Shown piece after piece: positions 1 to 21,205 of a stretch of DNA of 21,205 nucleotides. Where the stretch lies: positions 1 through 21,205 of the IMG/VR virus record IMGVR_UViG_3300028608_000096. One strand, written 5' to 3'. The stretch comes from a virus. Numbering within the stretch: position 1 is the first letter of the stretch; the number at the start of each line of letters is the position of its first letter. The position numbers and the translations under genes are program-made. Under the pieces are notes generated by a model. The model made no database searches, was not told where the DNA came from, and saw nothing but the letters and a program-made list of their open reading frames with translations.

Positions 1-2905
1 CCTCTACGCTGGTCTCTACGCCGTCCAGGCGAATAGCCAGGGCAGTAACCATCTCGCCCAGCGAGGCGTAATCGCCGATGTACTCCCAGAACGCAGCATC
101 GGTGACCGGGGTGCCGGCCGGTACATCTTGCTTGGCCCGGTACAGCTTGCCGTCGAGCTTGACCAGAGAGCCAGCCAAGTAGGCCTGGCCTGCATCCCAA
201 TCCGGCGCGCCAACTACATCGGCCAGCTGGGCTTGTAGCGAGTCAATCTGGTTCTGCAGGGCGATATCGCCGGCGGTCAGGCGCTCGTTAACCGAGCCCG
301 GACCCTCGCCGCTGATTTTCTCGATCTCGCTGAGCAGGCTCTGGCCGAGGTGGGTCTCGGTAATCTTGCCGGTGATGTAGTCGAGAATGGCATCGGCGTC
401 CGCGCTGGACTGGCCGTAGATCCAGTCGGACCAAGGGCCGATGTTGCCGGTACGATCCACCAGGCGGGCCCGGAACCAGCGCACCACCCCCGCGGCCATG
501 CCTGAGTGCAGATAAGTGGAAGTCGGGTAGGCGAACTGACCAAGAGACACTGGGTTTTGTCCGGTGCTCTCGGATGACATCTCAAGCTGCGTGTAAGCCG
601 TATCCTCAGCGCCAGCAGGGATACCCCACTCCAAGCGGATACCGAAAATTTCAGATGCTGCGCGCAGGAAAGACACCGCCGGCGGCGGGGTAGTCTTGCC
701 AGCGACATCTGTCAGTACCGAGGTGGTCGGAATTGAGGCCACGTCCATGGCACTCACCGCACGCACGCGCGCCAGGTATTGGCCAGCGTACACCCCGGTC
801 ACATCGATCATCAGCTCACCAGTGCGCGGCACCTTCACCCAGTCCCGCGCGCCCCAGCGCCATTCGACATCGTAGGCCACGGCCCCGGGCGCAGCATCCC
901 AGGCGATCGTCATCGTAGTGACCGCCAGGCCCTGACTGATTGCCTCATGGCTGGAGATCAATACCCGCGCAGGCGCGTCCTGCACACCAGGCGGCAGCAC
1001 GCTGATCGGGCGGTCATCGATCATGGCACCATAATCGATGACGTCGAACTTGCTCGGCTCGTGCTGGATGAGGTCAAGCTGGAACCTGGTCCACTCCGGG
1101 CGCGTCACGTTGCGCACGTAGAACTGCATGAGCTTCAGGTCGTCGTAGTCCAGCGCCCACCCGCACTCAGGCGCCGGTACTTCGCTGTAATCGGCCATGA
1201 CAGTGATCGTCCGCCCAGCCACCGAGCGCACCTGGCGGCTCTCGGTTTTGCCGCTGGGCAGGTTGACGAGCAGGCGAGCACCAGTGGGGACCTCTATATC
1301 GCGATCGATGGTCACGGTACGCCCAGCAGCGGCAGCAATCCGGCCGCCGTTTGCCCGACCAGCCAGCATAGGATCGGATAGCGCAATCACCTTCCCAGGC
1401 TTAGGGATGTAGCCATCGAGGCCGACATTGATCGTCGCGCCTCGCAGCTGCAGTTGCTCACTAAGTAGCGCCCACTGACCAGCGCGTTGAGCCTGCCCAC
1501 GCGAAGTGCAGCCGACCGCTTCGACGGACATGTCACGCACGCCGTATTCGGCCATGGCTTCCTCATCGAAGACCGGCTCCTTGTCGGTTTCGAAGCCCTG
1601 AGCGGGATCGTCAAACGAGACCATGGCCAGGCTGTGACGGTCCCGCCACTTGCTGCCGGTGTACTTGATCGCGCCATCGCCAAGGATCTGCGACATGGTG
1701 TAGGTGTAGACAGGGTCCTGCGGCATGTCGGCATTTACTGAGATCTGGTTGCCATCCCAGTACGCCAGGCCGTGGAAAATAGCGGCCAAGTCCTGCAGCA
1801 CAGCCCAGGCTTCGGCCTGCTTTTGCAGGTACAGGTTGCAGGTGAAGCGCGGCTCCTGCCCGCCTTTCCCGTCCGGCACCAGCTGGTCGCAGCGCTGTGC
1901 AATTCGGTACAGCGACCAGCGATTGATCATTGTCGCGTCGATTCGATCGCCCAAGCCGTAGTAAGGGTGCAACACCAGGTCGTAGAAGACCCAGGCCGGA
2001 TTGTTGGTGTAAGCCTCCTTGAATGATCCGTCCCAGACGCCGTTGGTGGTGCCTGCTCCGGACGTGGCGTAGGTACGGGTCTCCGGGTCGTAGTTCATCG
2101 GCACGCGAACGATACGACCGCGCATCAGCACCGCGATCTTGGCAATGTCGCCGCCGAACTGCTGAGCGTCATACTCGATGCAGCTGACAGCGGTCAGCGG
2201 ATACTCCTGGTCGCTATCCACGACCTCGGCGATAGCCTCCACGATCATGGCATCTTGCACCAGCGAGCTGTTTGCCTCGGGCGTCAGGCGGCGGGCGCGG
2301 ATGGTCCACCGGCTACCCTCTGGCAGCTCGATACGGTGCGATCGCTCGTATTTGGTGACGTTCTTGCGATTAACGTTTGAAGCCAGCACCTGCTGGTATG
2401 GCCCGCCATCGGTGGCCACGTCGATCGCGTATTCGATGCGCACGCCGTTGATGTTGCCGCCGCTGTCCTGGGCTTGCAGCGTTGGCCAGGAGAATCGCAC
2501 TCGAACGGCATCAATCATCGGGTTGTTGATCGAGTACACCCAGGGGATTGTGCTGCGCAGCTCCTGGGAAACTTGAATCTCGTTGCTCGACTCACTGACG
2601 CCGGTCATGCGCTCCTGATGGAGCTCGCCTGAGCGGAACTGCCACTTCACCCCTGGATAGTTGAGCGTGCCGTCCTCGGCCATGATCGGCGTGCCATCGA
2701 GCTTCACCGAGCGAAGATCGTTAACCGGGCCGACGATGGGGCCCCAGCTCCACAGATAAACCATGCGCGCCGTAGCGATCGAGGGCACGCTGTTGGAGGC
2801 AATGCTGGGCTGCTTTGGTTTCTTCGAGCCGCCCTTGCTGCCCGAAACCGATCGGCGCTTTGCAACGAGTGCGCGCCGTGGCGGGCTCTTCAGTGCTTCG
2901 CCCAT
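1..2905 (-). CDS. J: Tail tip / host-specificity protein J, C-terminus cut by window edge
   Basis: About 968 residues are visible and the frame is still open at the left edge, so the C-terminus is missing. In lambda-like phages J is the central tail-tip protein that contacts the host receptor. The sequence runs from a basic, Lys/Arg-rich N-terminus through the phage-tail-J core (WSWGPIVGPV near residue 52, VFYDLVLHPYYGLG near residue 315) to fibronectin-III-like beta segments (about residues 660-850). A short heptad-like stretch follows (NERLTAGDIALQNQIDSLQ, about 875-893). Residues about 902-945 have the aromatic/Gly pattern of a CBM5/12-type carbohydrate-binding module (W903, KLYRA, FWEYIGDY). 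The ATG at 2905 is preceded by GGAG at a 6-base spacing. It is the last tail-tip gene after M, L, K and I, the lambda order. Family assignment is firm; the sugar-binding role is inferred. Confidence 0.93.
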   Translation of the reverse strand, partial: MGEALKSPPRRALVAKRRSVSGSKGGSKKPKQPSIASNSVPSIATARMVYLWSWGPIVGPVNDLRSVKLDGTPIMAEDGTLNYPGVKWQFRSGELHQERMTGVSESSNEIQVSQELRSTIPWVYSINNPMIDAVRVRFSWPTLQAQDSGGNINGVRIEYAIDVATDGGPYQQVLASNVNRKNVTKYERSHRIELPEGSRWTIRARRLTPEANSSLVQDAMIVEAIAEVVDSDQEYPLTAVSCIEYDAQQFGGDIAKIAVLMRGRIVRVPMNYDPETRTYATSGAGTTNGVWDGSFKEAYTNNPAWVFYDLVLHPYYGLGDRIDATMINRWSLYRIAQRCDQLVPDGKGGQEPRFTCNLYLQKQAEAWAVLQDLAAIFHGLAYWDGNQISVNADMPQDPVYTYTMSQILGDGAIKYTGSKWRDRHSLAMVSFDDPAQGFETDKEPVFDEEAMAEYGVRDMSVEAVGCTSRGQAQRAGQWALLSEQLQLRGATINVGLDGYIPKPGKVIALSDPMLAGRANGGRIAAAAGRTVTIDRDIEVPTGARLLVNLPSGKTESRQVRSVAGRTITVMADYSEVPAPECGWALDYDDLKLMQFYVRNVTRPEWTRFQLDLIQHEPSKFDVIDYGAMIDDRPISVLPPGVQDAPARVLISSHEAISQGLAVTTMTIAWDAAPGAVAYDVEWRWGARDWVKVPRTGELMIDVTGVYAGQYLARVRAVSAMDVASIPTTSVLTDVAGKTTPPPAVSFLRAASEIFGIRLEWGIPAGAEDTAYTQLEMSSESTGQNPVSLGQFAYPTSTYLHSGMAAGVVRWFRARLVDRTGNIGPWSDWIYGQSSADADAILDYITGKITETHLGQSLLSEIEKISGEGPGSVNERLTAGDIALQNQIDSLQAQLADVVGAPDWDAGQAYLAGSLVKLDGKLYRAKQDVPAGTPVTDAAFWEYIGDYASLGEMVTALAIRLDGVETSVE

Positions 2906-2922
2906 TCAATTCTCCAGAAACG

Positions 2923-2943
2923 AAAAAGCCCGCCGAAGCGGGT
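2923..2943 (-). terminator. Intrinsic-terminator-like hairpin between I and J
   Basis: Read on the minus strand, CCCGC-TTCG-GCGGG forms a stable tetraloop hairpin, extended by a G-U pair, followed directly by TTTTT. It fills most of the 54-base gap between the I stop and the J start, and the J ribosome binding site follows about 10 bases later. As a simple terminator it would cut J off from the rest of the tail operon. Confidence 0.7.
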
Positions 2944-2959
2944 CAGGTGGTGAGGACAA

Positions 2960-3544
2960 TCACAGCTTGTCTTGGGTGTAGATTCCGCCCGACTCGACGG
3001 CCCCGCCGATCTCCCGCTCGCCGTAGAGCACCGGGTAAGGGTTGCCCTGGGCGATGGTGGTCATCGCAGAGCCAAAGCCGTAGCTCGGGTTGTTGCCATC
3101 CTCGTTGCGGTCCAGGCTGCCGGTCTTTGCCGTTGGCGAAAGCATCTGCACGACTCCGCTCAAGGCCAATGCGCCGCCGGCAGCCAACAAACCCATGCCG
3201 AGGGGCGTTGTCGTACCCCCTGAGAAAAGTCCGGCGACGACCAGGACCGCGCCAAGCACAACCTGGAACAGGCCGCCCTGCTTGCTGCCCTGAATAATCG
3301 GCGCAATACGGATCTCGTCAGTATCGCTGCCCCGCAGGTCCAGCTCTTCCGGCGCGAGATTTCGGCGACCAGAAAACACCGTGAACACCAGGCCCCGCTC
3401 TTCACCAGTAGCAAGAAACTTTTCGAAACCGGGAACCATGACGCAAAGCGCTTGGACTGCGTCCCTAGGGCTGTCGACTTCTAGCTGGTACTCGCGCCCA
3501 AAGTGCTTACGCAGTACCCCGTACAGCTTCACCGTGCGTTTCAC
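2960..3544 (-). CDS. I: Tail assembly protein I (lambda gpI family)
   Basis: The product is 194 residues. The N-terminal part (MKRTVKLYGVLRKHFG) looks like the beta-grasp, ubiquitin-like fold of lambda gpI. The middle has two Gly/Ala-rich hydrophobic stretches (VVLGAVLVVAGLF and GMGLLAAGGALALSGVV), and the C-terminus carries a GNPYPVLYGEREIGG segment typical of the family. I is needed for lambda tail-tip assembly with J, K and L but is not found in the finished tail. I chose the GTG at 3544: its GTGA overlaps the K stop by four bases and AGGA lies upstream. A longer reading from 3598 would overlap K by almost 60 bases. The position between K and J supports the call. Confidence 0.88.
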   Translation of the reverse strand: MKRTVKLYGVLRKHFGREYQLEVDSPRDAVQALCVMVPGFEKFLATGEERGLVFTVFSGRRNLAPEELDLRGSDTDEIRIAPIIQGSKQGGLFQVVLGAVLVVAGLFSGGTTTPLGMGLLAAGGALALSGVVQMLSPTAKTGSLDRNEDGNNPSYGFGSAMTTIAQGNPYPVLYGEREIGGAVESGGIYTQDKL

Positions 3545-5066: not shown

Positions 5067-5412
5067 AGTAGGGAGTGAATACCTGCCTCATCGTGAAGCT
5101 GATCTTGAACATCCCCGCGCCTTGCGGGTCGAGCTTATAGCCGTTGACCTTGTACCGACCCTGCGTGCCGCCGGGTGGCGTCCATAGAAACGACCGCCAC
5201 CCCTCATGGCGGTCGAGAAAGTCGCGCATCAGCCGCAACTCCTGACCGACATCCAGGCTGCCTACAGCCTGGTGCGACCACTCCTGAGACTTGGTGTTGA
5301 TGCCTGTGCCGCCCGACTGGGCGTAGCCGTCACCGAAATCGTTCTCCCAGACTCGCTGCTTGATATCGCCAGTCGCACCAAGCCGAGTGCAGAAGCCAAA
5401 CGTCTCTGCCAT
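5065..5412 (-). CDS. M: Minor tail protein M
   Basis: The product is 115 residues, close to lambda gpM (109). It matches the minor-tail family: a conserved start around GFCTRLGATGD, the WENDFGDGYAQ segment, LMRDFLDRHEG and the WTPPGGTQGRYKVNGYKL segment near the C-terminus. M acts in tail-tip assembly between the tape measure and L. The ATG at 5412 overlaps the tape measure stop by one base (TGATG) and is preceded by GGAGG at a good distance. An alternative start 12 bases upstream lacks this spacing. Translational coupling to the tape measure gene is likely. Confidence 0.9.
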   Translation of the reverse strand: MAETFGFCTRLGATGDIKQRVWENDFGDGYAQSGGTGINTKSQEWSHQAVGSLDVGQELRLMRDFLDRHEGWRSFLWTPPGGTQGRYKVNGYKLDPQGAGMFKISFTMRQVFTPY

Positions 5413-7970
5413 CACCGCCTCCACATTGAGCCGCCCTGCGTGAACTCTTCGTTCACAACCTGGCGGATGGTTTGTCGCAGTCCTTCGCCCATCATGTCGC
5501 CCTGCCGGCGCGCGGTTTCATCGCTCATGCCAGGCTGGGCCTGCACAGTGACAGGCGCATTGATGGTGATTCCCCCGGCGCGCCCAGTGCCGGCGCCAGC
5601 GTCATTCGCATTACGCAGGTATTGAGTCAGATCGCGGTTCTGATTTGGGTTCAACACCCGCTCGCCGCCATCGAGCAACCAAGTACCTTCCCGCGGGATA
5701 GTGTCGATACCATCGTGAGCCATACCCATGAGCGCGGTGGACGCGACCCCAGCAACCATTGGAGCAGTAGCAGCTGCTGCTGCAGCGGCGGCTCCCGGGG
5801 CCATCGCTGGGCCGACAATGGGAATAGCCGCGGTAGACGCGAACGCTGCCAGACTGGCTTGAAACGCCGTTGCCTGGGCGTTGGCGACCATCCCGATTCC
5901 TGCCATGGACTGAGTGCTTTTCCCCACTACCAACTGGACCGCTTGGTAAATGAGCCACTGTGCCGCCATGTCGGTCAGAGCTTGCACTCCGGCCTTGGCA
6001 AATCCAGTGAGCATGTCCATCAGCGCGTCACCCGCGTCCTTCGAGTCGGTGGCCACGTCGGAAAGGAACGAACTGAGCTCACCTCTGGCGCTACCGAGAA
6101 TCGAGGTCGTAGCGTCGGCTGCCATGCCCGAATAGTCGGTTGCAGCGTCCGCGAAGTTCTCCCAGGCGCTGGTGACGCCGTCTATCCAGTTGTTTTGCGC
6201 CTCGTCCAGCCGGCTGTAGTAGTCGTTCTGCAACTCCAAGCGCTCGGCGAGAGCATCGCTCAGCACCTGAGTTTCCTGGTCGTACAGCTCCTGGCTGATA
6301 TCGCCGCTGTTGCGTTGCAGCACCAGCTCGCGCTGCTGACGGTTGAAGTCCTCCTCGATGGCTAGGCGTTCTTTCAAGCGCTCCTTGTACTTATCGCCCC
6401 GGCCGGCACCAGCAAGCTCCTGATCGAACCCACTTTTGGCAGTCTGGTAGTCCTCGCTGACGTTGGAGCGAAAGGCCGCGAGCTTCTTAGCGTCTTCCTC
6501 GGCGCTTTTCACCTTCTTCAACGCATCAAGCTCAGCAGCCAGCCCCTCCAGGCGTTTCCGCTGTTTGTCGTTGATCCCGTCAAGCTTTCCGCTGGAGACT
6601 TCGAAGGCAAGCTTCTCGACCTCTGTCGCATCCTTGCGCTTGTCCGTGGTCGTGTTGATCAGCTCAATCTGACGCCGGTAGTTCTCTTCGGTCGTCTCGA
6701 AAATTTGATTGAGTTTTTTGCTTGCCGCCTCGGCAGCCTTGGCAGCCGCTTTCTGTGCGTCTGTCTGACCAAGGATTCCCGCGCTCCCGCTGCCGGCGGG
6801 CACGATCTTCGGCAGGTCGGATGCCGCCTTTCGTGCCTCCTTGACGTACTCGCGAATAACGTCGCCAGACCACGGCTTTTTGAACTCATCAGCCAGGTCT
6901 GCGGCGATCATGCTTGCCGTGCGCGAGTGGTCAATTGCGTCAGCTGTAAGCTTCGCCGCGTTTTCCTTGAAATCTTTCGACATATCGCCAAACGTGACGC
7001 TGCCAAGCAAGGTATTGGCTGTTGCACCAATGCTTTGCAGATATGCCATCGTCGTGGCAAACCCACTGGCGATAGTCCCGGCGACGATAGTGAAAGCTCG
7101 GCTTGTACCATCGGCAAGGCTCGCAGTGATTGCCGTGACCTCAATTAAGTCCTCGGCAAACTCATGCACCACATTCCTCAGGCCGCCAGCCTCTCTGGAG
7201 GTGTCAGCCAAGTCTTTGGCCAGTTGCGCCAACACAGGCATGAACTCAGCTGCCAGAGCTGTCTTTGCCGAGTTGGCGTACTGGCCAATAACAGTCAGCT
7301 CGGTGCTGAACCGTTGAGCAGCGCCGATCGTCTGCTCGTCCATGATCATGCCGGCAGACTGAGCAGCATCACCAAGTTCCTTGAATTTCTTCCCCCCATC
7401 GGCCAAGAGCGGAACCAAAGCCGTAGCCTCGTCAGCAATCGCCTCCATGAAGAAGGTCATCTGCGCCTGGCTGACGTTCGCTTTCTGGAGACTGCTGACG
7501 TAAAGCTGTAGGGCATCCGCGCTGTTCAGCTTGCGGAACTGCTCTGCAGTGACGCCCACTTTCGGTGCGACCGTATCGAAGAAGTTCTTGAGTTCGCCGC
7601 CGCCAGTGGCAAGGAAATCTCCGACTTTGTCGTTGGTGTCCTTGAAGATGTCCGAAAGTTTGTCCTGCTGTACACCAACTGAAGCTGCGGCAGCGGCGTA
7701 GCGCTGGAACTCAGTTGTGCTCAGGCCAGCAAGTGCTGATAGGTTGGAGAGTTCTTTGGCCGCTGTAGCAGAACTGGTTACTAGACCGGCCACAACAGCA
7801 GGGATCGCAGCGAAAGTAGCGCCTACGGCAGTGCCTAGCCGCTCGGCGTGCTTACGTATCTCCGTCATTTGCTTCTGTGTTTCGCGCCCGGCCTTGTCCA
7901 TCGGACCGGTAAAACCGCCAATCCTCGCGATCAAGTCGAGAGTCAATGTGCCAAGAGAACGGCTCGCCAT
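5412..7970 (-). CDS. Tail tape measure protein (lambda gpH-like)
   Basis: The 852-residue protein sets tail length and passes into or across the envelope during DNA ejection. The N-terminus (SLGTLTLDLIARIGGF, then MDKAGRETQKQM) is typical of phage tape measures. The middle is a long charged, largely helical region (about residues 410-600) with frequent Lys/Glu heptads. The C-terminal part matches the lambda-H tape-measure domain (NWIDGVTSAWENFADAATDYSG, then FAKAGVQALTDMAAQWLIYQ), followed by an Ala-rich hydrophobic stretch. At roughly 1.5 angstrom per residue the tail would be about 125 nm. The ATG at 7970 has GGAGGAAAGC directly upstream. Extending to 8000 would place the start inside a terminator hairpin. 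Confidence 0.94.
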   Translation of the reverse strand: MASRSLGTLTLDLIARIGGFTGPMDKAGRETQKQMTEIRKHAERLGTAVGATFAAIPAVVAGLVTSSATAAKELSNLSALAGLSTTEFQRYAAAAASVGVQQDKLSDIFKDTNDKVGDFLATGGGELKNFFDTVAPKVGVTAEQFRKLNSADALQLYVSSLQKANVSQAQMTFFMEAIADEATALVPLLADGGKKFKELGDAAQSAGMIMDEQTIGAAQRFSTELTVIGQYANSAKTALAAEFMPVLAQLAKDLADTSREAGGLRNVVHEFAEDLIEVTAITASLADGTSRAFTIVAGTIASGFATTMAYLQSIGATANTLLGSVTFGDMSKDFKENAAKLTADAIDHSRTASMIAADLADEFKKPWSGDVIREYVKEARKAASDLPKIVPAGSGSAGILGQTDAQKAAAKAAEAASKKLNQIFETTEENYRRQIELINTTTDKRKDATEVEKLAFEVSSGKLDGINDKQRKRLEGLAAELDALKKVKSAEEDAKKLAAFRSNVSEDYQTAKSGFDQELAGAGRGDKYKERLKERLAIEEDFNRQQRELVLQRNSGDISQELYDQETQVLSDALAERLELQNDYYSRLDEAQNNWIDGVTSAWENFADAATDYSGMAADATTSILGSARGELSSFLSDVATDSKDAGDALMDMLTGFAKAGVQALTDMAAQWLIYQAVQLVVGKSTQSMAGIGMVANAQATAFQASLAAFASTAAIPIVGPAMAPGAAAAAAAATAPMVAGVASTALMGMAHDGIDTIPREGTWLLDGGERVLNPNQNRDLTQYLRNANDAGAGTGRAGGITINAPVTVQAQPGMSDETARRQGDMMGEGLRQTIRQVVNEEFTQGGSMWRR

Positions 7971-7985
7971 GCTTTCCTCCAGGCG

Positions 7986-8009
7986 AAAAAAAGCCCGCAT
8001 CAGCGGGCT
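7986..8009 (-). terminator. Intrinsic terminator after the Imm-like gene
   Basis: On the minus strand AGCCCGC-TGAT-GCGGGCT is a perfect 7-bp stem with a 4-base loop, followed by an unbroken run of T. It lies 15 bases after the Imm-like gene stop and just ahead of the tape measure ribosome binding site. This is one of the best terminators in the window. It marks the Imm-like gene as a separately terminated unit. Confidence 0.82.
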
Positions 8010-8023
8010 AATTGCTTGTTCGG

Positions 8024-8377
8024 CTACCTTCCCTTGAGAACTCTCCGCTTTTCTTCGTCGAATTCTTCTTGGGTTAGATGGCCGCGCTCCTTCAGGTCAG
8101 CCAACTGCTCGAGTCGCCGATAGCTATCGTTCTCCGCCGCTGGCCGAGCCGCAGGGGTGGAGGGCTCATCCACACGGTTTCGTCGAATTGCAGACGCTGA
8201 CCATATGAGAGCAACGAACCACCCAATAACCGTCCATCCGAGCAGCAGGTTGAGCAAAAAGATCGAAACACGATTCGGGTGCTGCCTGATCCACGCAACG
8301 ATCGTTGGAGGAAAGTAGAACAGCGCCGCTGTTACCGCCGTGCCGATGCCCATGTAGGTGTTCACATCAGCTGCCAT
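8024..8377 (-). CDS. Superinfection-immunity (Imm-like) membrane protein with SHOCT tail
   Basis: The 117-residue protein has two hydrophobic membrane segments (about residues 10-30 and 38-63). They carry the signature of the superinfection-immunity family related to phage T4 Imm: YFPPTIVAWIRQ, then IFLLNLLLGWTVIGWFVALI. A Pro/Ala linker leads to a C-terminal SHOCT domain (about residues 86-117, QLADLKERGHLTQEEFDEEK). T4 Imm stops DNA entry of a second phage. Here such a role at the inner membrane is inferred from the family and from position: the gene sits between the tail chaperone and tape measure genes, where HK97 carries its exclusion gene gp15. It has its own terminator and a possible promoter, as expected for a moron. 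The ATG at 8377 follows GGAGG by about ten bases. Confidence 0.8.
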   Translation of the reverse strand: MAADVNTYMGIGTAVTAALFYFPPTIVAWIRQHPNRVSIFLLNLLLGWTVIGWFVALIWSASAIRRNRVDEPSTPAARPAAENDSYRRLEQLADLKERGHLTQEEFDEEKRRVLKGR

Positions 8378-8406
8378 GGTTAGTCGCCCTCCCTGCAAAT
8401 CCGGGC

Positions 8407-8434
8407 AATCTAACATCCGACAGCCCAAGGCCAA
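8407..8434 (-). promoter_or_regulatory. Possible promoter for the Imm-like gene
   Basis: On the minus strand TTGGCC, a 16-base spacer and TAGATT resemble a sigma-70 promoter, with four of six consensus bases in each box. It lies in the 68-base gap between the end of the GT reading frame and the Imm-like start. Transcription would begin about 20 bases upstream of the start codon. The match is modest. Confidence 0.33.
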
Positions 8435-8445
8435 AGGGTCAAGTG

Positions 8446-9134
8446 TCAGACCCACTGCTCCATGGCCTGCTCCAGACTGGTTACTCGACGATCTTCGTGC
8501 GGCGCAAAATCAGCAGGCACGAACGGCTCCGGCCGCCGCGTCCTGTCGCGGCCCTGGTTGGCAATGATCGAGGCCAGAAGGGCCGCAGATCGCTCAACTC
8601 TCATACCGATGTGGAGCGACCCCCGGCGGTTCCTGAACTTCACCCAGGAATGAAACTCACGCAGGCTCAGGGCTTCTTGAGCTTGCGCGATCGTGGAGCC
8701 GCCGACGCCGGCAAGGACGAGTTCGTGCCAGAGTTCGTCGAGCTCGGTGAGCTCGGCATCTTTCCCAAGTTGTTCACCTCATGAATGGCCGTGAGCAGTG
8801 CAACGGTCAGGTTGCCGTCCAGGGCGCCCATCCGCTTAATGCTGTCCTTGTCCTTGGCCAGCTCATCTGGATCGAGCGGGCCATGGGTGATATCAAGCGC
8901 GGTGAACACCGGGTTGCCTTCCTCGTCGCAGATGGCAGCAGCGATGCGGCCTGCGATGCTGTCCTGCTTGCCGCCGGCGGCGAGCACATCGCTGACCGCA
9001 GTCTGGTAACCCAGCGGACGAACGAACACGGTAGCAGTGATCATATCTGTACCCTGCCGCCAGGTGATTTCCTTCTCAACTGGCCGGCCGGTGAAAGAGC
9101 CCGCTTGCCGCAGGCTGTCGATGTTGAGCTTCAT
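8446..9134 (-). CDS. Tail assembly chaperone GT, -1 frameshift product
   Basis: This entry is the predicted fusion made by a -1 shift at 8760-8766: 125 residues from the upstream frame joined to 104 residues from the downstream frame, 229 in total. The downstream part has no start of its own near the junction and reads as a real protein (DELWHELVLAGVGG, HIGMRVERSAALLASIIANQ, VTSLEQAMEQW), like lambda gpT-type extensions. In lambda, G and GT bind the tape measure and recruit tube subunits. The gene lies between tube and tape measure as in lambda, apart from the inserted Imm-like gene. The fusion joins codons ending in GGA AAG to GAT GCC. Confidence 0.85.
8667..9134 (-). CDS. Tail assembly chaperone G (unshifted product)
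   Basis: The unshifted product is 155 residues. Its N-terminal 120 residues are a phage tail assembly chaperone (SLRQAGSFTGRPVEKEITW, then TATVFVRPLGYQTAVSD and an acidic region around DPDELAKDK). After the slip site at residue 125 it becomes Ser/Pro-rich and basic (MPSSPSSTNSGTNSSLP). That is what a second frame over a real gene looks like, so this tail may be of little importance. In lambda the short form is made in large excess over GT. The start is ATG at 9134, eight bases after the tube gene stop. Confidence 0.87.
   Translation of the reverse strand: MKLNIDSLRQAGSFTGRPVEKEITWRQGTDMITATVFVRPLGYQTAVSDVLAAGGKQDSIAGRIAAAICDEEGNPVFTALDITHGPLDPDELAKDKDSIKRMGALDGNLTVALLTAIHEVNNLGKMPSSPSSTNSGTNSSLPASAAPRSRKLKKP
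8739..8766 (-). promoter_or_regulatory. Programmed -1 frameshift site: GGGAAAG plus hairpin
   Basis: On the minus strand the heptamer G GGA AAG is in the correct phase (X XXY YYZ) with the G reading frame, at codons 123-125. It is the same heptamer used by lambda G/GT. Four bases later CGAGCTC-ACC-GAGCTCG can fold into a perfect 7-bp hairpin with a 3-base loop, a possible stimulator of slippage. The -1 frame is then open for 104 codons. Confidence 0.85.
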
Positions 9135-9142
9135 TGGCTACC

Positions 9143-9634
9143 TCAGGCGGTCTTCTTGATCCAGGCGGAGCCGCCCGAGCGTTGAATGGATACCGCAGTG
9201 CTGACCACGGCGTTGGCTGCGAAGTCGAACGGGAAGTCTGCAACGTAGCCTTCGTAGACGAACCAAGTGCGGCTTTCGGGCAGTTCGAAGTCATCCCCTT
9301 CGGTGTTGAGGGTCGGCGCCGCGGTGCCATCCGACCAACCTACTGCCCATTTGACCGTGGTGTCACCATCGGCCTCAGACATCTGATGGAGGCGAATGTG
9401 GCTGGCGTTGTTGGGATCGGCGTTGATGGTCAAAGACGCTTGGCCAGGGGTTCGCAATCCAGGCTTGTAGGTGCGCTCCTTCGAGCTGAGGCACGTGTCC
9501 TCGATCTGCTCCTTTGGAGATCCGCCAGGGTTGAAGGCGGTGGCGCACTCCACCTCCATCACGCTAAGCGGGCCTGTGCCAGTGGCAGGTGGCACCAGGG
9601 CGTAGACCTGGGTGCCTTGGGTCAAAATCGACAT
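9143..9634 (-). CDS. Major tail tube protein (lambda gpV-like)
   Basis: The 163-residue protein matches the phage tail tube family of lambda gpV ([16 protein letters not shown], a central [20 protein letters not shown] and a beta-rich remainder with [20 protein letters not shown]). Stacked rings of this protein form the flexible non-contractile tube around the tape measure. It has no obvious C-terminal Ig-like decoration domain, so it corresponds to the N-terminal part of lambda gpV. The ATG at 9634 has AGGAGA upstream. An upstream extension to 9670 would run through a terminator and is rejected. The neighbours are the tail terminator before and the chaperone after. Confidence 0.92.
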
Positions 9635-9655
9635 GGTGGTCTCCTGTCGGGCAAT

Positions 9656-9677
9656 AAAAAACCCGCACAAGGCGGGT
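9656..9677 (-). terminator. Intrinsic-terminator-like hairpin before the tube gene
   Basis: On the minus strand ACCCGC-CTTGT-GCGGGT is a 6-bp stem with a 5-base loop followed by TTTTT. It lies in the 61-base gap between the tail terminator gene and the tube gene. It would separate the head/neck genes from the tail genes if not overridden. Confidence 0.72.
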
Positions 9678-18104: not shown

Positions 18105-18339
18105 CGCCTTCAACCACTAGGCCACGGCCGTCGACGGTGAAGACGACGGTCAGCCTTACCGGCTCGCCAGGCTCACTGAGCATTGAGGTACTGGCCTGAC
18201 ATGGCAGCAGTTCACCGCTTTCGGTGTGCAAGGCGAACGGCGAAGACGAATCAGGCTTACCCGGCACATAACGACAAGAGGCGTCGCCAAGGCAGGTCAC
18301 GTCGACATCAGGCGCTACACGCTTCAATACCAGCTTCAT
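18094..18339 (-). CDS. Hypothetical phage protein, 81 residues
   Basis: The product is beta-rich and acidic: MKLVLKRVAPDVDVTCLGDA, then SSSPFALHTESGELLPCQAS and an alternating hydrophobic end (VRLTVVFTVDGRGLVVEGDV). It has three cysteines, no signal peptide and no membrane segment. The ATG overlaps the upstream holin-like stop by one base (TGATG), so it is read as part of the lysis/late leader cluster. I recognise it only as a small conserved-looking phage gene and cannot give a function. It is not an obvious spanin, since it lacks a lipobox or an N-terminal anchor. Confidence 0.7.
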   Translation of the reverse strand: MKLVLKRVAPDVDVTCLGDASCRYVPGKPDSSSPFALHTESGELLPCQASTSMLSEPGEPVRLTVVFTVDGRGLVVEGDVV

Positions 18340-18620
18340 CAGTCCACCCTAACGATCTTGGCCACGTTGCCCTTGGCCCGGCACACCAAGATGGCGGCCA
18401 GCAGGTAGAACGCAGTGTTGAACCAGGACGCATCGGCGAAATCGTCGTGCATCACCATGCGGCCAACGAGGCTGACGCACTGCATCCCCGTCACAGCGCA
18501 GGCCGCCCACGCCATCAGCGATATGCCCAGCTTGTAGCGGGCATCTGGATACGGCCGGTATCGCAGCCCGATCATTACGAAGATGACGGCGCATAGAGCG
18601 GCCTGGATAACGGCAACCAT
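18339..18620 (-). CDS. Holin-like membrane protein 2
   Basis: The 93-residue protein has three hydrophobic segments: the N-terminus (VAVIQAALCAVIFVMIGLRY), the middle (LGISLMAWAACAVTGMQCVS) and near the C-terminus (WFNTAFYLLAAILVCRA), with a basic end. This matches the three-helix phage holin family often placed next to another holin gene. It could be the holin itself or the antiholin partner of the upstream gene. The ATG lies directly after that gene's stop and its ribosome binding site (GGAGGG) lies inside the end of that gene. No endolysin gene is next to it. Confidence 0.75.
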   Translation of the reverse strand: MVAVIQAALCAVIFVMIGLRYRPYPDARYKLGISLMAWAACAVTGMQCVSLVGRMVMHDDFADASWFNTAFYLLAAILVCRAKGNVAKIVRVD

Positions 18621-18995
18621 TCAACCCTCCTTCCTGGCTCGCAGGCGGAAGACCCATTGCAGCCAGGTAGGCATGCGCCCGGTCTGCATCCACTCCAGCA
18701 AGCCAGAGAATGTAACGACGCAGAGCACGCCGCATACGAATGCGCTGAAGCCAGCGGTCTGGGTCCAGGCCCGGCCCATCAGCTCGGCTGAACCGAAGTA
18801 GCCACCGATCCAGCCAGCCAGTAGATAGCCGACACGGCGCCAGGTGCTGATGTCCTTGGCGAACACCACGTAGAAGAAAGCCCCGCCGAACGCGCCGACC
18901 AGTGCGGCGAGATCCAGCTGAGGGAATGCAGCACCCAGGCCGACGCTGGCAAGTACGCCGGTCACTGCGAGGGCGCCGGTACTTGGCTCGGCCAT
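18621..18995 (-). CDS. Holin-like membrane protein 1
   Basis: The 124-residue protein has about four hydrophobic stretches (ALAVTGVLASVGLGAAFP, AALVGAFGGAFFYVVFA, GYLLAGWIGGYFG and FVCGVLCVVTFSGLLEW) and a basic C-terminus (RLRARKEG). This fits putative phage holins that form the lysis lesion in the inner membrane. It is the first gene after the late promoter and tandem terminators, the place of S in lambda. The ATG at 18995 follows GGAG by eight bases. A longer in-frame reading up to 19148 would translate through both terminator hairpins and is rejected. Confidence 0.75.
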   Translation of the reverse strand: MAEPSTGALAVTGVLASVGLGAAFPQLDLAALVGAFGGAFFYVVFAKDISTWRRVGYLLAGWIGGYFGSAELMGRAWTQTAGFSAFVCGVLCVVTFSGLLEWMQTGRMPTWLQWVFRLRARKEG

Positions 18996-19009
18996 AAGCA
19001 CTGCTCCAT

Positions 19010-19035
19010 AAAAAAGCCCCGGCATTTGCCAGGGC
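19010..19035 (-). terminator. Intrinsic terminator ahead of the holin gene
   Basis: On the minus strand GCCCTGGC-AAAT-GCCGGGGC is an 8-bp stem (one G-U pair) with a 4-base loop, followed by six T. It lies between the candidate late promoter and the holin start, where lambda has tR'. It is the second of two hairpins in tandem. Confidence 0.83.
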
Positions 19036-19046
19036 TCAGAAACGAC

Positions 19047-19073
19047 AAAGCCCAGCTCAATGGCCGGGCTTTT
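19047..19073 (-). terminator. First hairpin of the tandem pair
   Basis: On the minus strand AAAGCCCGGC-CATTGA-GCTGGGCTTT forms a 10-bp stem with one G-U pair, followed by a short, broken T tract (GTCGTTT). The matching A and T flanks would let it work in either direction. Alone it is a moderate terminator; with the next hairpin it makes a strong block. Confidence 0.65.
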
Positions 19074-19118
19074 GTAGTGCCACTCCTCAGCAACGCGCAG
19101 GAATGACAGGATGGGGAA

Positions 19119-19148
19119 ATAATCGGCCATGCGGCCATTTGATGTCAA
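19119..19148 (-). promoter_or_regulatory. Candidate late promoter (pR'-like)
   Basis: On the minus strand a perfect -35 box TTGACA is followed by an 18-base spacer and GATTAT (four of six -10 bases). The -35 box overlaps the stop codon of the upstream regulator-like gene. The spacer contains GGCC-GCAT-GGCC, a short inverted repeat that could bind a protein. Transcription would start near 19112 and meet the tandem terminators within about 40-100 bases. Confidence 0.6.
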
Positions 19149-19723
19149 GCGGCATTTTCCATCGACAGGCCTTCGTGATCCAGAATGTCTGCCGCCGCCT
19201 CCAGGGCCTCTTCGGCCATCTGCTCCAGCACGTCTTCAATACCCTTTCTCCAGCGGCGACGAGTGCGCTCCGGGCGGGCCTCCGGGTCCCAGCGATTGAT
19301 GTCGTAGAACTGAGCCGGCAGAACGATCATGTCGCTCGACCGCTTTCCATCTGCGCCCTTCATCTTGGGAATCGCCCAGGCCGTCACGGCGCTGGTGATG
19401 AATAGTTTCGGCGCATGGGAGGCAACCATCGGGATCAGTCGGCTAATCGACTGGACTTTTCGGCCCTTGTGCGTGCTGAACCTGGCCACCAGGACATCCC
19501 AGTGGCGCGCCTTCAGCTGGCTATGCAAACGCGCGAACACCCAACAGTCGGCATCCATACGGCTGATCTCGCCGCGCTCCACTGATCTGCTCAAGGTGGC
19601 CATGTCGTGGCCTTCTTCGCTGCCTGGCTCGTATAGCTTCTGCCAGGCCTGCTTGCTGGTGTTATCGATCGCTTCTGCAGCCAGGGCCGAGACGACCGCC
19701 GCGAGTACGCTGCTGTAAATCAT
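19145..19723 (-). CDS. Possible late-gene regulator in Q position
   Basis: The 192-residue soluble protein has a helical N-terminus (MIYSSVLAAVVSALAAEAID), a basic central segment (VARFSTHKGRKVQSISRLI), a conserved-looking block (MKGADGKRSSDMIVLPAQFY) and an Arg-rich segment (PEARPERTRRRWRKGIEDVL) suited to nucleic acid binding, then an acidic helical end. Its size is near lambda Q (207), but it has one cysteine (C60) and so lacks the zinc motif of lambda Q. I infer an antitermination-type or other late-activator role from position: it directly precedes a promoter, tandem terminators and the holin. Similar proteins occur in Pseudomonas prophages in this place. The ATG at 19723 has GGGGGAAGG upstream. 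The function call is tentative; that it is a gene is firm. Confidence 0.72.
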   Translation of the reverse strand: MIYSSVLAAVVSALAAEAIDNTSKQAWQKLYEPGSEEGHDMATLSRSVERGEISRMDADCWVFARLHSQLKARHWDVLVARFSTHKGRKVQSISRLIPMVASHAPKLFITSAVTAWAIPKMKGADGKRSSDMIVLPAQFYDINRWDPEARPERTRRRWRKGIEDVLEQMAEEALEAAADILDHEGLSMENAA

Positions 19724-19734
19724 GTCCTTCCCCC

Positions 19735-20052
19735 TCAATCCCCGGTGTAGTTGCTGCCCCCGGCGCCGAGCCGGTTGCCTTCCTGATACTGCGCGCCCGG
19801 GCCTGTGGCCCGAGAATTCTTCAACTGCTCGATCTGCCGGAGCGCTGCCCGAAGCCTCATGCTGAGCTGGGTCACCAGTTCATCCAGGGCCAGGGCCTCG
19901 CCTGTTGCGGCCACTACCCAGCCTGAGGCGTTGCAGTGGTCGCATGGCAGTTCGTGAAACAAACCCTTGGTTACCGCTCTCCCACGGCACAAAGGGCATA
20001 CATCCAATTCAATTACGGCCTTCTTGAAAGCCGGGCCGTGGCTTTTCCTCAT
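19735..20052 (-). CDS. Zinc-motif (half-DnaJ-type) phage protein
   Basis: The 105-residue protein has two Cys-x-x-Cys pairs, C19/C22 (CPLCRGRA) and C37/C40 (CDHCNASGW), resembling one zinc unit of the DnaJ cysteine-rich domain. A helical middle follows (ALALDELVTQLSMRLRAALR, then QIEQLKN) and a Gly/Asn-rich end (GNRLGAGGSNYTGD). A nucleic acid or protein-binding zinc ribbon is likely; the precise role is unknown. The ATG at 20052 overlaps the upstream stop (ATGA). It ends 11 bases before the regulator-like gene, so the two probably act in one operon. Confidence 0.82.
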   Translation of the reverse strand: MRKSHGPAFKKAVIELDVCPLCRGRAVTKGLFHELPCDHCNASGWVVAATGEALALDELVTQLSMRLRAALRQIEQLKNSRATGPGAQYQEGNRLGAGGSNYTGD

Positions 20053-20231
20053 TCTGCTCGACGCCCCTTCTTGGCCTTCAACCAAGGCCGTGGAGGCTGC
20101 CGTTTCGAGCCAGCGATCTCCGAAGTGATGTCAAAGAACTCGTCGATGATCACCATCCCAGGGATGCCGACACCACGAATGCCGCCATCGAGGAACAGCA
20201 GCGGGGCGCGGGACTTGCCCAGATTTCTCAT
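20049..20231 (-). CDS. Hypothetical 60-residue phage protein
   Basis: The product opens with basic residues, has a Gly/Ile-rich centre (LLFLDGGIRGVGIPGMVIID), then EFFDITSEIAG and a strongly basic, Pro-rich end (RQPPRPWLKAKKGRR). It overlaps both neighbours by four bases with ATGA signals, so it is translated in a chain from the recombinase to the zinc-motif gene. No known family is recognised. The overlaps on both sides and a balanced amino acid mix make it likely to be real. Confidence 0.68.
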   Translation of the reverse strand: MRNLGKSRAPLLFLDGGIRGVGIPGMVIIDEFFDITSEIAGSKRQPPRPWLKAKKGRRAE

Positions 20232-21205
20232 TTCGAATCCTCGCTAATAACTAATTTGCTAAGGCCTCCCGAAGCCTCGCCACCATTGGCCTGTGCCGAA
20301 TTCTGCGGGATTTCAAATAAGGCCTCTTTAAGGCCATGGACGGCGCTGAAGCCGATCCGATCAAGCCACGCATGCCACTTCTCTAGAGCCAACTTGCGCT
20401 GCTCCATGGCCTGCGTGTGGATGTAGGTGCTGGCGATTTTGCCCAGCGAGTGGTTGAGCAGCATCTCGCCGATGTGGCCGTCGATACCGAGGTCGGTCCA
20501 GGTAGTGCGGGACACCTTGCGCAGGTCGTGACTGGTCCACTCGCCTTGCCCCAGTCGGGTGAACACCATGCTGGCCTGGGTCTCGCTCAATGGCTGCCCG
20601 CGACGATTCGGGAACAGGTAGGCGCCTTCGTAGCCCTTGGACTGCTGAATGGCGCGGTAGCGGATCAGCAGCGCCTGAAACTGGGCGGTCAGTGGCAGGC
20701 GGTGCTCGGTGCGGGTCTTGGTGTGGGCGGCCGGAATGAACCACTCGGCAGCAGCCAAGGTGACATCGCTCCAGCGCGCCATGCGGGTCTCTCCGATTCG
20801 AGTGCCATGGGCCAGCATCATCAAAGCCAACATGGCGTCGCTCGGGCTCGTCTCGAAGGCCTGAGCCAACTGCTGCATCAGCTCAGGTAAGTGCACGCCA
20901 CGCAGGCGAGCAGCCTTTGCGGTGATTCGCGCCTTGGTGAAGTCACTGAAGCGCACCCCGGTCATGGGGTTGCCGTCGATCATCTCCAGCTTCAGGGCCT
21001 GACGAAAGGCGGTCAGCAGCATCCCGAACATTTGCCGGAGATAGGACAGCGACAGCTTGGCCTGGCCTGGCCAGATCAGATGCTTATCGATCAGTTCGGC
21101 GCTGACGTACTTGATTGGCAGATCGCCCAGGCATGGCCGCAGGTGCTTGCCCACTGCGGCGCGGGTGGCAGCCTTGCGCTTCGCCGATAGGGAGCGGTCG
21201 CGAGC
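20228..21205 (-). CDS. Tyrosine recombinase / integrase, N-terminus cut by window edge
   Basis: About 325 residues are visible; the frame is open to the right edge (upstream codons read RSLSAKRKAATRAAVGKH), so the start is outside and the GTG at 21154 is internal. The core-binding domain (YLRQMFGMLLTAFRQALKLE) is followed by the catalytic domain. All expected residues are seen: Arg in HGTRIGE, Lys in TKTRTEHRLPLT, His-x-x-Arg in SHDLRKVSR, His in LNHSLGKIASTY and the nucleophile Tyr in the same block. Enzymes of this type insert and excise phages at att sites. The stop overlaps the next gene, leaving no room for attP on this side. It may be the integrase or a recombinase of another use in the early region. 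Confidence 0.92.
   Translation of the reverse strand, partial: ARDRSLSAKRKAATRAAVGKHLRPCLGDLPIKYVSAELIDKHLIWPGQAKLSLSYLRQMFGMLLTAFRQALKLEMIDGNPMTGVRFSDFTKARITAKAARLRGVHLPELMQQLAQAFETSPSDAMLALMMLAHGTRIGETRMARWSDVTLAAAEWFIPAAHTKTRTEHRLPLTAQFQALLIRYRAIQQSKGYEGAYLFPNRRGQPLSETQASMVFTRLGQGEWTSHDLRKVSRTTWTDLGIDGHIGEMLLNHSLGKIASTYIHTQAMEQRKLALEKWHAWLDRIGFSAVHGLKEALFEIPQNSAQANGGEASGGLSKLVISEDSK

What the first reader, a model, noticed from the sequence alone, without database searches (positions are those of the whole stretch)
8024..8434. Imm/SHOCT membrane gene inserted between chaperone and tape measure genes
A two-helix membrane protein with the superinfection-immunity signature and a SHOCT tail sits as a separate unit with its own strong terminator and a possible promoter. 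HK97 carries its exclusion gene gp15, which blocks phage DNA entry, at this same place, and T4 Imm also blocks DNA entry. A small gene of this family in this slot is a good candidate for a lysogen-expressed exclusion factor. The SHOCT tail may be a specificity or assembly part.
Basis: partly seen in the sequence, partly recalled or inferred. Interest (0 to 1): 0.62.

Follow-up and report, generated by a model that had tools for sequence, protein, structure and literature searches.

The report
Phage self-exclusion gene beside tape measure
A small membrane-protein gene with its own on and off signals sits just before the gene for the phage's DNA-injecting tape measure protein, and many related viruses carry it there, which suggests that a resident virus uses it to stop similar viruses from injecting their DNA.

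Summary
Window 8024-8377 (-) encodes a 117-aa protein with a strong Imm_superinfect domain (PF14373, E 4e-19; 51% identical over 59 aa to a T4-type Imm) and a SHOCT tail. It lies between the tail-chaperone genes and the tape measure protein (TMP) gene, followed by a terminator.

Comparative work goes beyond the finding. Of the 80 best viral relatives, 75 have the gene directly upstream of a TMP. In 39 non-redundant copies the gap is nearly constant (53-60 nt in 36). All 39 have a terminator in the gap (1.8% of shuffles) and the same extended -10 element upstream (0.5% of shuffles). So it is an autonomous promoter-gene-terminator cassette (a moron), built like the HK97 gp15 cassette but not homologous to gp15.

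The junction is empty in many relatives and holds other cargo in others. Imm sequence co-varies with the middle of the TMP (about residues 180-440) in two TMP groups, better than with the TMP start that lies between them.

Best explanation: a prophage-expressed inner-membrane exclusion protein that blocks DNA entry by phages with a matching TMP. Exclusion itself is untested. New variant of a known kind.

The parts
8024..8377 (-). imm-SHOCT gene, 117 aa: hydrophobic Imm_superinfect part (about residues 3-65), variable linker (68-81), SHOCT helical hairpin (82-115)
   Evidence: predicted structure (helices 3-21, 23-31, 36-65, 82-97, 103-115; mean pLDDT 67)
8407..8415 (-). extended -10 element TGTTAGATT of the cassette's own promoter
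   Evidence: TGNTANAWT within 90 nt upstream in 39 of 39 non-redundant cassettes, 0.5% in shuffles; about 0.0007 per 90 nt elsewhere in the same loci
8429..8434 (-). weak -35 TTGGCC, spacer 16
   Evidence: poorly conserved among relatives
8387..8394 (-). ribosome-binding site AGGGAGGG
   Evidence: sequence; a CAGGGAG-like element recurs in relatives
7985..8009 (-). intrinsic terminator between imm and the TMP gene (stem 7992-8009 and T run)
   Evidence: present in 39 of 39 cassettes, 1.8% in shuffles; in 1 of 41 empty junctions
5412..7970 (-). tape measure protein gene, start at ATG 7970 after GGAGG (the ORF from 8000 would begin inside the terminator)
6642..7430 (-). TMP codons 181-443, the part whose sequence co-varies with Imm; contains a hydrophobic segment at residues 293-311
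8446..8643 (-). T-like tail protein, upstream border of the slot
   Evidence: phrog_5297 E 4.5e-19; PF06223 just below cut-off
8667..9134 (-). tail assembly chaperone (PF16459)
9143..9670 (-). major tail tube protein (PF16460)
20228..21154 (-). phage integrase (PF00589), evidence of a temperate phage; upstream end cut by the window

Best explanation
It is a prophage-expressed superinfection exclusion cassette. Its own extended -10 promoter makes imm mRNA in the lysogen while the late genes are silent, and the terminator stops that transcript before the TMP gene. The product sits in the inner membrane through its hydrophobic Imm part, with the SHOCT hairpin as an accessory module. When a phage of a matching TMP type begins injection, Imm acts at the step where the TMP, or the host inner-membrane protein it needs, opens the way across the inner membrane. 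The DNA then fails to enter. The relevant part of the TMP is its middle, about residues 180-440. Shown here: family, anatomy, conserved promoter and terminator signals, recurrent placement at the TMP, dispensability in relatives, co-variation with the TMP middle. Inferred: expression in the lysogen, membrane location, exclusion, block at DNA entry, TMP as specificity determinant.
For: (1) Homology to T4-type Imm, E 5e-18 over 59 aa; Pfam and PHROG matches above. (2) 75 of the 80 best IMG/VR relatives have a TMP-like long ORF directly downstream; gap 53-60 nt in 36 of 39 non-redundant copies. (3) Terminator 39 of 39 and extended -10 39 of 39, both far above shuffles. (4) The 39 copies precede TMPs of two groups unlinked at E 1e-5, with 14 different first-8-residue starts, on tail modules whose tube and chaperone genes mostly show no detectable similarity. 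(5) The slot is a docking site: 41 junctions have no insert and 26 hold other cargo, 23 of these with a terminator. (6) HK97 gp15, a published exclusion protein that acts on DNA injection, has the same anatomy; HK97 hybrids with HK022 tail tube and TMP genes escape it, and TMP changes overcome TP-J34 Ltp exclusion (PMC10883804). (7) Imm co-varies with TMP residues 181-443, rho 0.60-0.66, against 0.31-0.38 for residues 1-180, which lie between them, and 0.12-0.22 for the rest; partial rho 0.61 given the N-terminal part. A second TMP group peaks in a similar region. (8) Four phages 70-94% identical to the window in the tail genes upstream and 78-86% in the TMP C-terminus have a different Imm together with a different TMP front and middle. 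(9) Homologues outside the TMP slot also fit prophage expression: one directly downstream of a Peptidase_S24 repressor gene (L253), two after lysis genes near a contig end with the same promoter (L232, L241).
Against: No expression or infection data. Pairing is not strict: L185 and L194 have a TMP about 80-90% identical to the window's over most of its length but an Imm only about 50% identical. Co-variation rests on a handful of lineages that are not independent (Mantel p 0.0005 does not correct for this). The middle of the TMP is also its more variable part, which favours a strong correlation. Imm_superinfect proteins are also common in bacterial chromosomes away from phage tail genes, so the domain alone does not prove exclusion. 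The -35 is weak and poorly conserved.
Confidence: 0.68

Rival explanations
1. It is a late tail-morphogenesis accessory, a partner of the TMP needed for tail assembly or for the phage's own injection, which would also explain adjacency and co-variation.
For: Same strand and same late region; near-constant spacing to the TMP; co-variation with the TMP middle.
Against: Absent from 41 related tail operons in which the T-like gene is followed directly by the TMP, including TMPs about 86% identical over the first 240 residues (L023, L028-L030, L032). It has its own promoter and a terminator before the TMP. Homologues occur beside a repressor gene or after lysis genes.
Confidence: 0.1
2. It excludes phages, but with specificity set by a host inner-membrane protein that the TMP uses, not by the TMP itself: Imm blocks or alters that host partner.
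For: In lambda-like phages TMP residues about 300-400 go with dependence on ManYZ (PMC13190303), overlapping by position the co-varying stretch. The small prophage-encoded protein DicB acts on inner-membrane receptor proteins (PMC6832061, title and abstract only).
Against: No host partner is known for these TMPs. The position match is by residue number only; the proteins were not aligned. No computed result separates this from direct TMP binding.
Confidence: 0.25
3. Broad defence against unrelated phages, with placement beside the TMP only because that junction tolerates inserts.
For: The junction accepts many unrelated inserts: lipoproteins, a zinc-ribbon membrane protein, inverted ORFs.
Against: Insert tolerance does not explain why Imm tracks the TMP middle better than the T-like gene on its other side (rho 0.60 against 0.26).
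Confidence: 0.12
4. A lysogenic conversion gene for host membrane physiology with no role against phages.
For: Imm_superinfect and SHOCT proteins are frequent in bacterial chromosomes outside recognisable phage tail modules.
Against: Recurrent placement at tape measure genes; the closest phage homologues are named superinfection immunity proteins.
Confidence: 0.08

Closest known systems
T4 Imm family (PF14373; T4, JS98 and relatives)
   Same: Homologous hydrophobic core with the LNLLLGWT-IGW signature; 51% identity over 59 aa to JS98 Imm; clears the Pfam cut-off.
   Different: JS98 Imm is 78 aa with no SHOCT part and lies beside the DNA polymerase gene of a large T4-like phage, not near the TMP. 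Here it is a cassette with its own promoter in a temperate siphophage's tail operon.
HK97 gp15 moron (superinfection exclusion, blocks DNA entry)
   Same: Same slot between the G/T chaperone genes and the TMP, own terminator, short gap to the TMP, small membrane protein in a temperate phage.
   Different: No sequence homology; 62 aa against 117; no Imm or SHOCT domain. Analogue only.
Imm-zinc-ribbon cassette of Pseudomonas phage YMC11/02/R656 (unnamed gene BPPAER656_00650)
   Same: Imm part, same TGGTAGATT promoter element, terminator, directly before the 1006-aa ORF in TMP position.
   Different: The C-terminal part is a zinc ribbon plus another domain instead of SHOCT; annotated hypothetical.
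Other TMP-directed defences: TP-J34 Ltp, JBD26 Tab, SNIPE
   Same: All act on or through the TMP of the invading phage (PMC10883804, PMC10884400, PMC13190303).
   Different: Unrelated families by description. Tab blocks tail assembly and lies between the terminase genes; SNIPE is a nuclease; Ltp is a lipoprotein.

Membership tests
Imm_superinfect (PF14373, T4 Imm) | Profile match above the curated cut-off | tested here: met
   68.5 bits against 27.9, E 4.4e-19; PHROG 1039 E 4.8e-24
Imm_superinfect (PF14373, T4 Imm) | Sequence homology to a named phage Imm | tested here: met
   51% over 59 aa to JS98 Imm, E 5e-18
Imm_superinfect (PF14373, T4 Imm) | Blocks DNA entry of superinfecting phage | not testable with these tools
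   Needs infection assays
SHOCT domain (PF09851) | C-terminal profile match above cut-off | tested here: met
   29.4 bits against 27, residues 88-114; conserved throughout alignment A2
Phage moron | Gene present between two genes that are adjacent in relatives | tested here: met
   41 junctions without insert, among them D3 and Psp6
Phage moron | Own promoter | tested here: met
   Met as a conserved sequence signal: extended -10 in 39 of 39. Activity not measured; -35 weak
Phage moron | Own terminator | tested here: met
   39 of 39
Phage moron | Expressed from the prophage | not testable with these tools
   Needs lysogen RNA
HK97 gp15 family | Sequence homology to gp15 | tested here: not met
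   BLASTP E 0.36; hhalign probability 0.3%
HK97 gp15 family | Same genomic slot and cassette anatomy | tested here: met
   HK97 gp15 8203-8391, terminator 8398-8422, TMP 8435

The most novel reading that the evidence does not exclude
T4-type Imm proteins are exclusion factors matched to the tape measure protein. In these siphophages Imm and the middle of the TMP form a pair that tends to be exchanged together, so the Imm sequence tells which TMP type it blocks. By extension the unresolved target of T4 Imm may also be the injection machinery around its TMP. The cassette is a general chassis (conserved promoter, conserved membrane core, terminator) with exchangeable C-terminal parts: SHOCT, zinc ribbon, extra hydrophobic segment.
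Probability: 0.35. Interest if true: 0.82.

Novelty: new variant of a known kind. Interest (0 to 1): 0.64.

Why it matters
How Imm-type proteins stop DNA entry, and what they recognise, has to my knowledge never been settled. A widespread cassette that keeps an Imm protein beside the tape measure gene, and whose sequence tracks one part of that protein, names a target and a region to test. It would tie T4 Imm to the growing set of defences that read the tape measure protein (HK97 gp15, Ltp, Tab, SNIPE). It also marks the chaperone-TMP junction as a place to find further small prophage exclusion genes.

Tried and rejected
HK97 gp15 homology: rejected. PADLOC defence models: no match for the imm protein. 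Rfam RNA families: none in the window. Foldseek of the AlphaFold model against PDB: no match at E 0.001 or better, and the model is of modest confidence (mean pLDDT 67, pTM 0.30), so no fold-based claim is made. SHOCT as an oligomerisation module: the paper that defined the domain tested this and did not support it (PMC3581485), so it is not invoked. A search with the L247 protein in 'phages' returned nothing, while other family members hit hundreds of T4-type Imm records; probably the low-complexity filter, so it is not used as evidence of absence. Longer ORF start GTG 8455: rejected because it overlaps the end of the T-like gene and the promoter, and ATG 8377 has the ribosome-binding site. 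Full text of Cumby 2012 (HK97 gp15) is not held; its content is taken from papers that cite it. Literature searches for PF14373 or for Imm beside a TMP found no description; subscription journals are mostly not searched. Strict one-to-one Imm-TMP pairing: rejected because of L185 and L194.

Full report
1. The gene. Window 8024-8377 on the minus strand encodes 117 aa from an ATG with a good ribosome-binding site. It matches Imm_superinfect (PF14373) over residues 20-60 at E 4.4e-19 and SHOCT (PF09851) over residues 88-114, both above the curated cut-offs, and PHROG 1039 'immunity to superinfection'. It is 51% identical over 59 aa to the Imm of the T4-like phage JS98. dN/dS among close homologues is 0.07-0.31, so the protein is under purifying selection. 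AlphaFold gives helices 3-21, 23-31 and 36-65, a disordered linker, and a C-terminal helical hairpin, at modest confidence.

2. The slot. Upstream lie the major tail protein, the tail assembly chaperone and a T-like protein; downstream lies a lambda-type tape measure protein (TMP). The TMP most likely starts at 7970, after GGAGG; the ORF start at 8000 would lie inside the terminator. In HK97 the same junction holds gp15 (8203-8391), a terminator (8398-8422) and the TMP start at 8435. gp15 and this protein are not homologous.

3. The junction is a docking site. Relatives were collected through the chaperone and the junction was read in each. In 41 there is no insert, among them Psp6 and D3. In 26 there is other cargo: putative lipoproteins, a BamE-like lipoprotein, a zinc-ribbon membrane protein, inverted ORFs (for domains). 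23 of these 26 have a terminator before the TMP; only 1 of the 41 empty junctions has one (D3). PseuP_224 has a putative lipoprotein gene behind the same type of -10 element and the same type of terminator.

4. The Imm cassette is stereotyped and widespread. A profile-guided scan of IMG/VR gave 510 relatives, of which the best 80 were kept. In 75 of the 80 a long TMP-like ORF follows directly. In 39 non-redundant copies (90% clustering of TMP-adjacent loci, including the window) the gap from imm stop to TMP start is 53-60 nt in 36. All 39 have a GC stem-loop with a T run in the gap (1.8% of dinucleotide shuffles). All 39 have TGNTANAWT within 90 nt upstream, mostly about 33 nt before the start (0.5% of shuffles). 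The motif is almost absent elsewhere in the same loci (about 0.0007 per 90 nt). Flanking positions carry little information, so the element is conserved beyond general similarity. The TMPs fall into two groups not linked at E 1e-5, with 14 different N-terminal starts; the group-2 tail modules mostly show no similarity to the window's tube, chaperone or T genes.

5. Imm outside the slot. Of the five non-adjacent loci, L253 has Imm directly downstream of a Peptidase_S24 repressor-type gene. L232 and L241 lack a downstream TMP; in L232, examined in detail, Imm follows a DUF2514 gene after lysis-type genes near the contig end, and both keep TGGTAGATT at -33. L245 has Imm further along the tail module, after the NlpC-type tail gene, and L246 is a relative; both keep the motif. 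The promoter thus travels with the gene while the TMP-side terminator does not.

6. Exchangeable C-terminus. The isolated P. aeruginosa phage YMC11/02/R656 has Imm plus zinc ribbon plus a further domain, the TGGTAGATT element, a terminator, and a 1006-aa ORF in TMP position. A Pseudomonas genome locus (L267) has Imm plus zinc ribbon before a TMP; Aidingimonas (L156/L260) has Imm plus an extra hydrophobic segment before a TMP. In a sample of 299 Pseudomonas genomes 19 have a match, of which three more besides the query genome give long Imm-SHOCT matches.

7. Co-variation with the TMP. In 24 loci of TMP group 1, Imm identity correlates with TMP residues 181-443 at rho 0.66, with residues 1-180 at 0.31, and with the C-terminal half at 0.12-0.15. 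The partial correlation with the middle given the N-terminal part is 0.61, the reverse is 0.00; in 1000 subsamples the middle was not better in 0.1%. With 20 loci that also have tube, chaperone and T genes, Imm against the middle is 0.60, against T 0.26, chaperone 0.30, tube 0.04; the TMP C-terminus tracks chaperone and T (0.57-0.74) instead. Linkage alone would predict decay with distance, yet the N-terminal part lies between Imm and the middle. Group 2 (26 loci) peaks at about residues 170-470 (0.45-0.58), against 0.30-0.42 before and 0.11-0.29 after. In both groups the stretch contains a hydrophobic segment, though the TMPs have others. Limits: few independent lineages, no phylogenetic correction, the middle is also the more variable part, and L185 and L194 break strict pairing.

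8. Mechanism. Published work links exclusion at this step to the TMP: HK97 hybrids with HK022 tail tube and TMP genes escape gp15, and TMP changes overcome TP-J34 Ltp (PMC10883804). In lambda-like phages TMP residues about 300-400 go with dependence on the inner-membrane complex ManYZ (PMC13190303), a match by position only. The most likely reading is a prophage-expressed inner-membrane protein that blocks injection by phages with a matching TMP, either by contact with the TMP or through its host partner. Expression, location and exclusion are inferred.

9. Novelty. The domain family, the slot and morons are known. I found no description of an Imm-SHOCT cassette fixed beside the TMP, of its conserved promoter and terminator, or of Imm-TMP co-variation (open-access papers only). 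Filed as a new variant of a known kind.

Noticed in passing
L245:5911-7408; L270-L273: A possible second docking site: Imm followed by a small putative lipoprotein and a tail-assembly-I-like gene. In L270-L273 the Imm carries a zinc ribbon instead of SHOCT.
   Followed up: partly
L095 (phage D3), junction 1749-1799: The only junction without an insert that still has a terminator between the T-like gene and the TMP; perhaps a scar of a lost cassette.
   Followed up: no
L094 (PseuP_224), 2612-3307: A putative lipoprotein gene in the slot behind a TGTTAGATT element and the same kind of terminator: different payload between similar control signals.
   Followed up: partly
L253:4646-6330: Imm-SHOCT homologue directly downstream of a Peptidase_S24 (CI-type) repressor gene.
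   Followed up: partly
L282 (Salmonella phage vB_SenS-Ent3), 4504-4683: A Jerseyvirus imm gene lies in a block of inverted genes between the major tail protein and TMP genes, three genes from the TMP.
   Followed up: no
window 8446-9134: Chaperone and T-like ORFs are in different frames and the T-like ORF has only a GTG start; a lambda-like frameshift product is likely, as annotated in HK97.
   Followed up: no
window 18339-19148: Two adjacent genes match different holin families (PF05449 and PF16931).
   Followed up: no
window 19145-19738: Conserved phage protein of unknown function, phrog_3412, E 1e-81.
   Followed up: no
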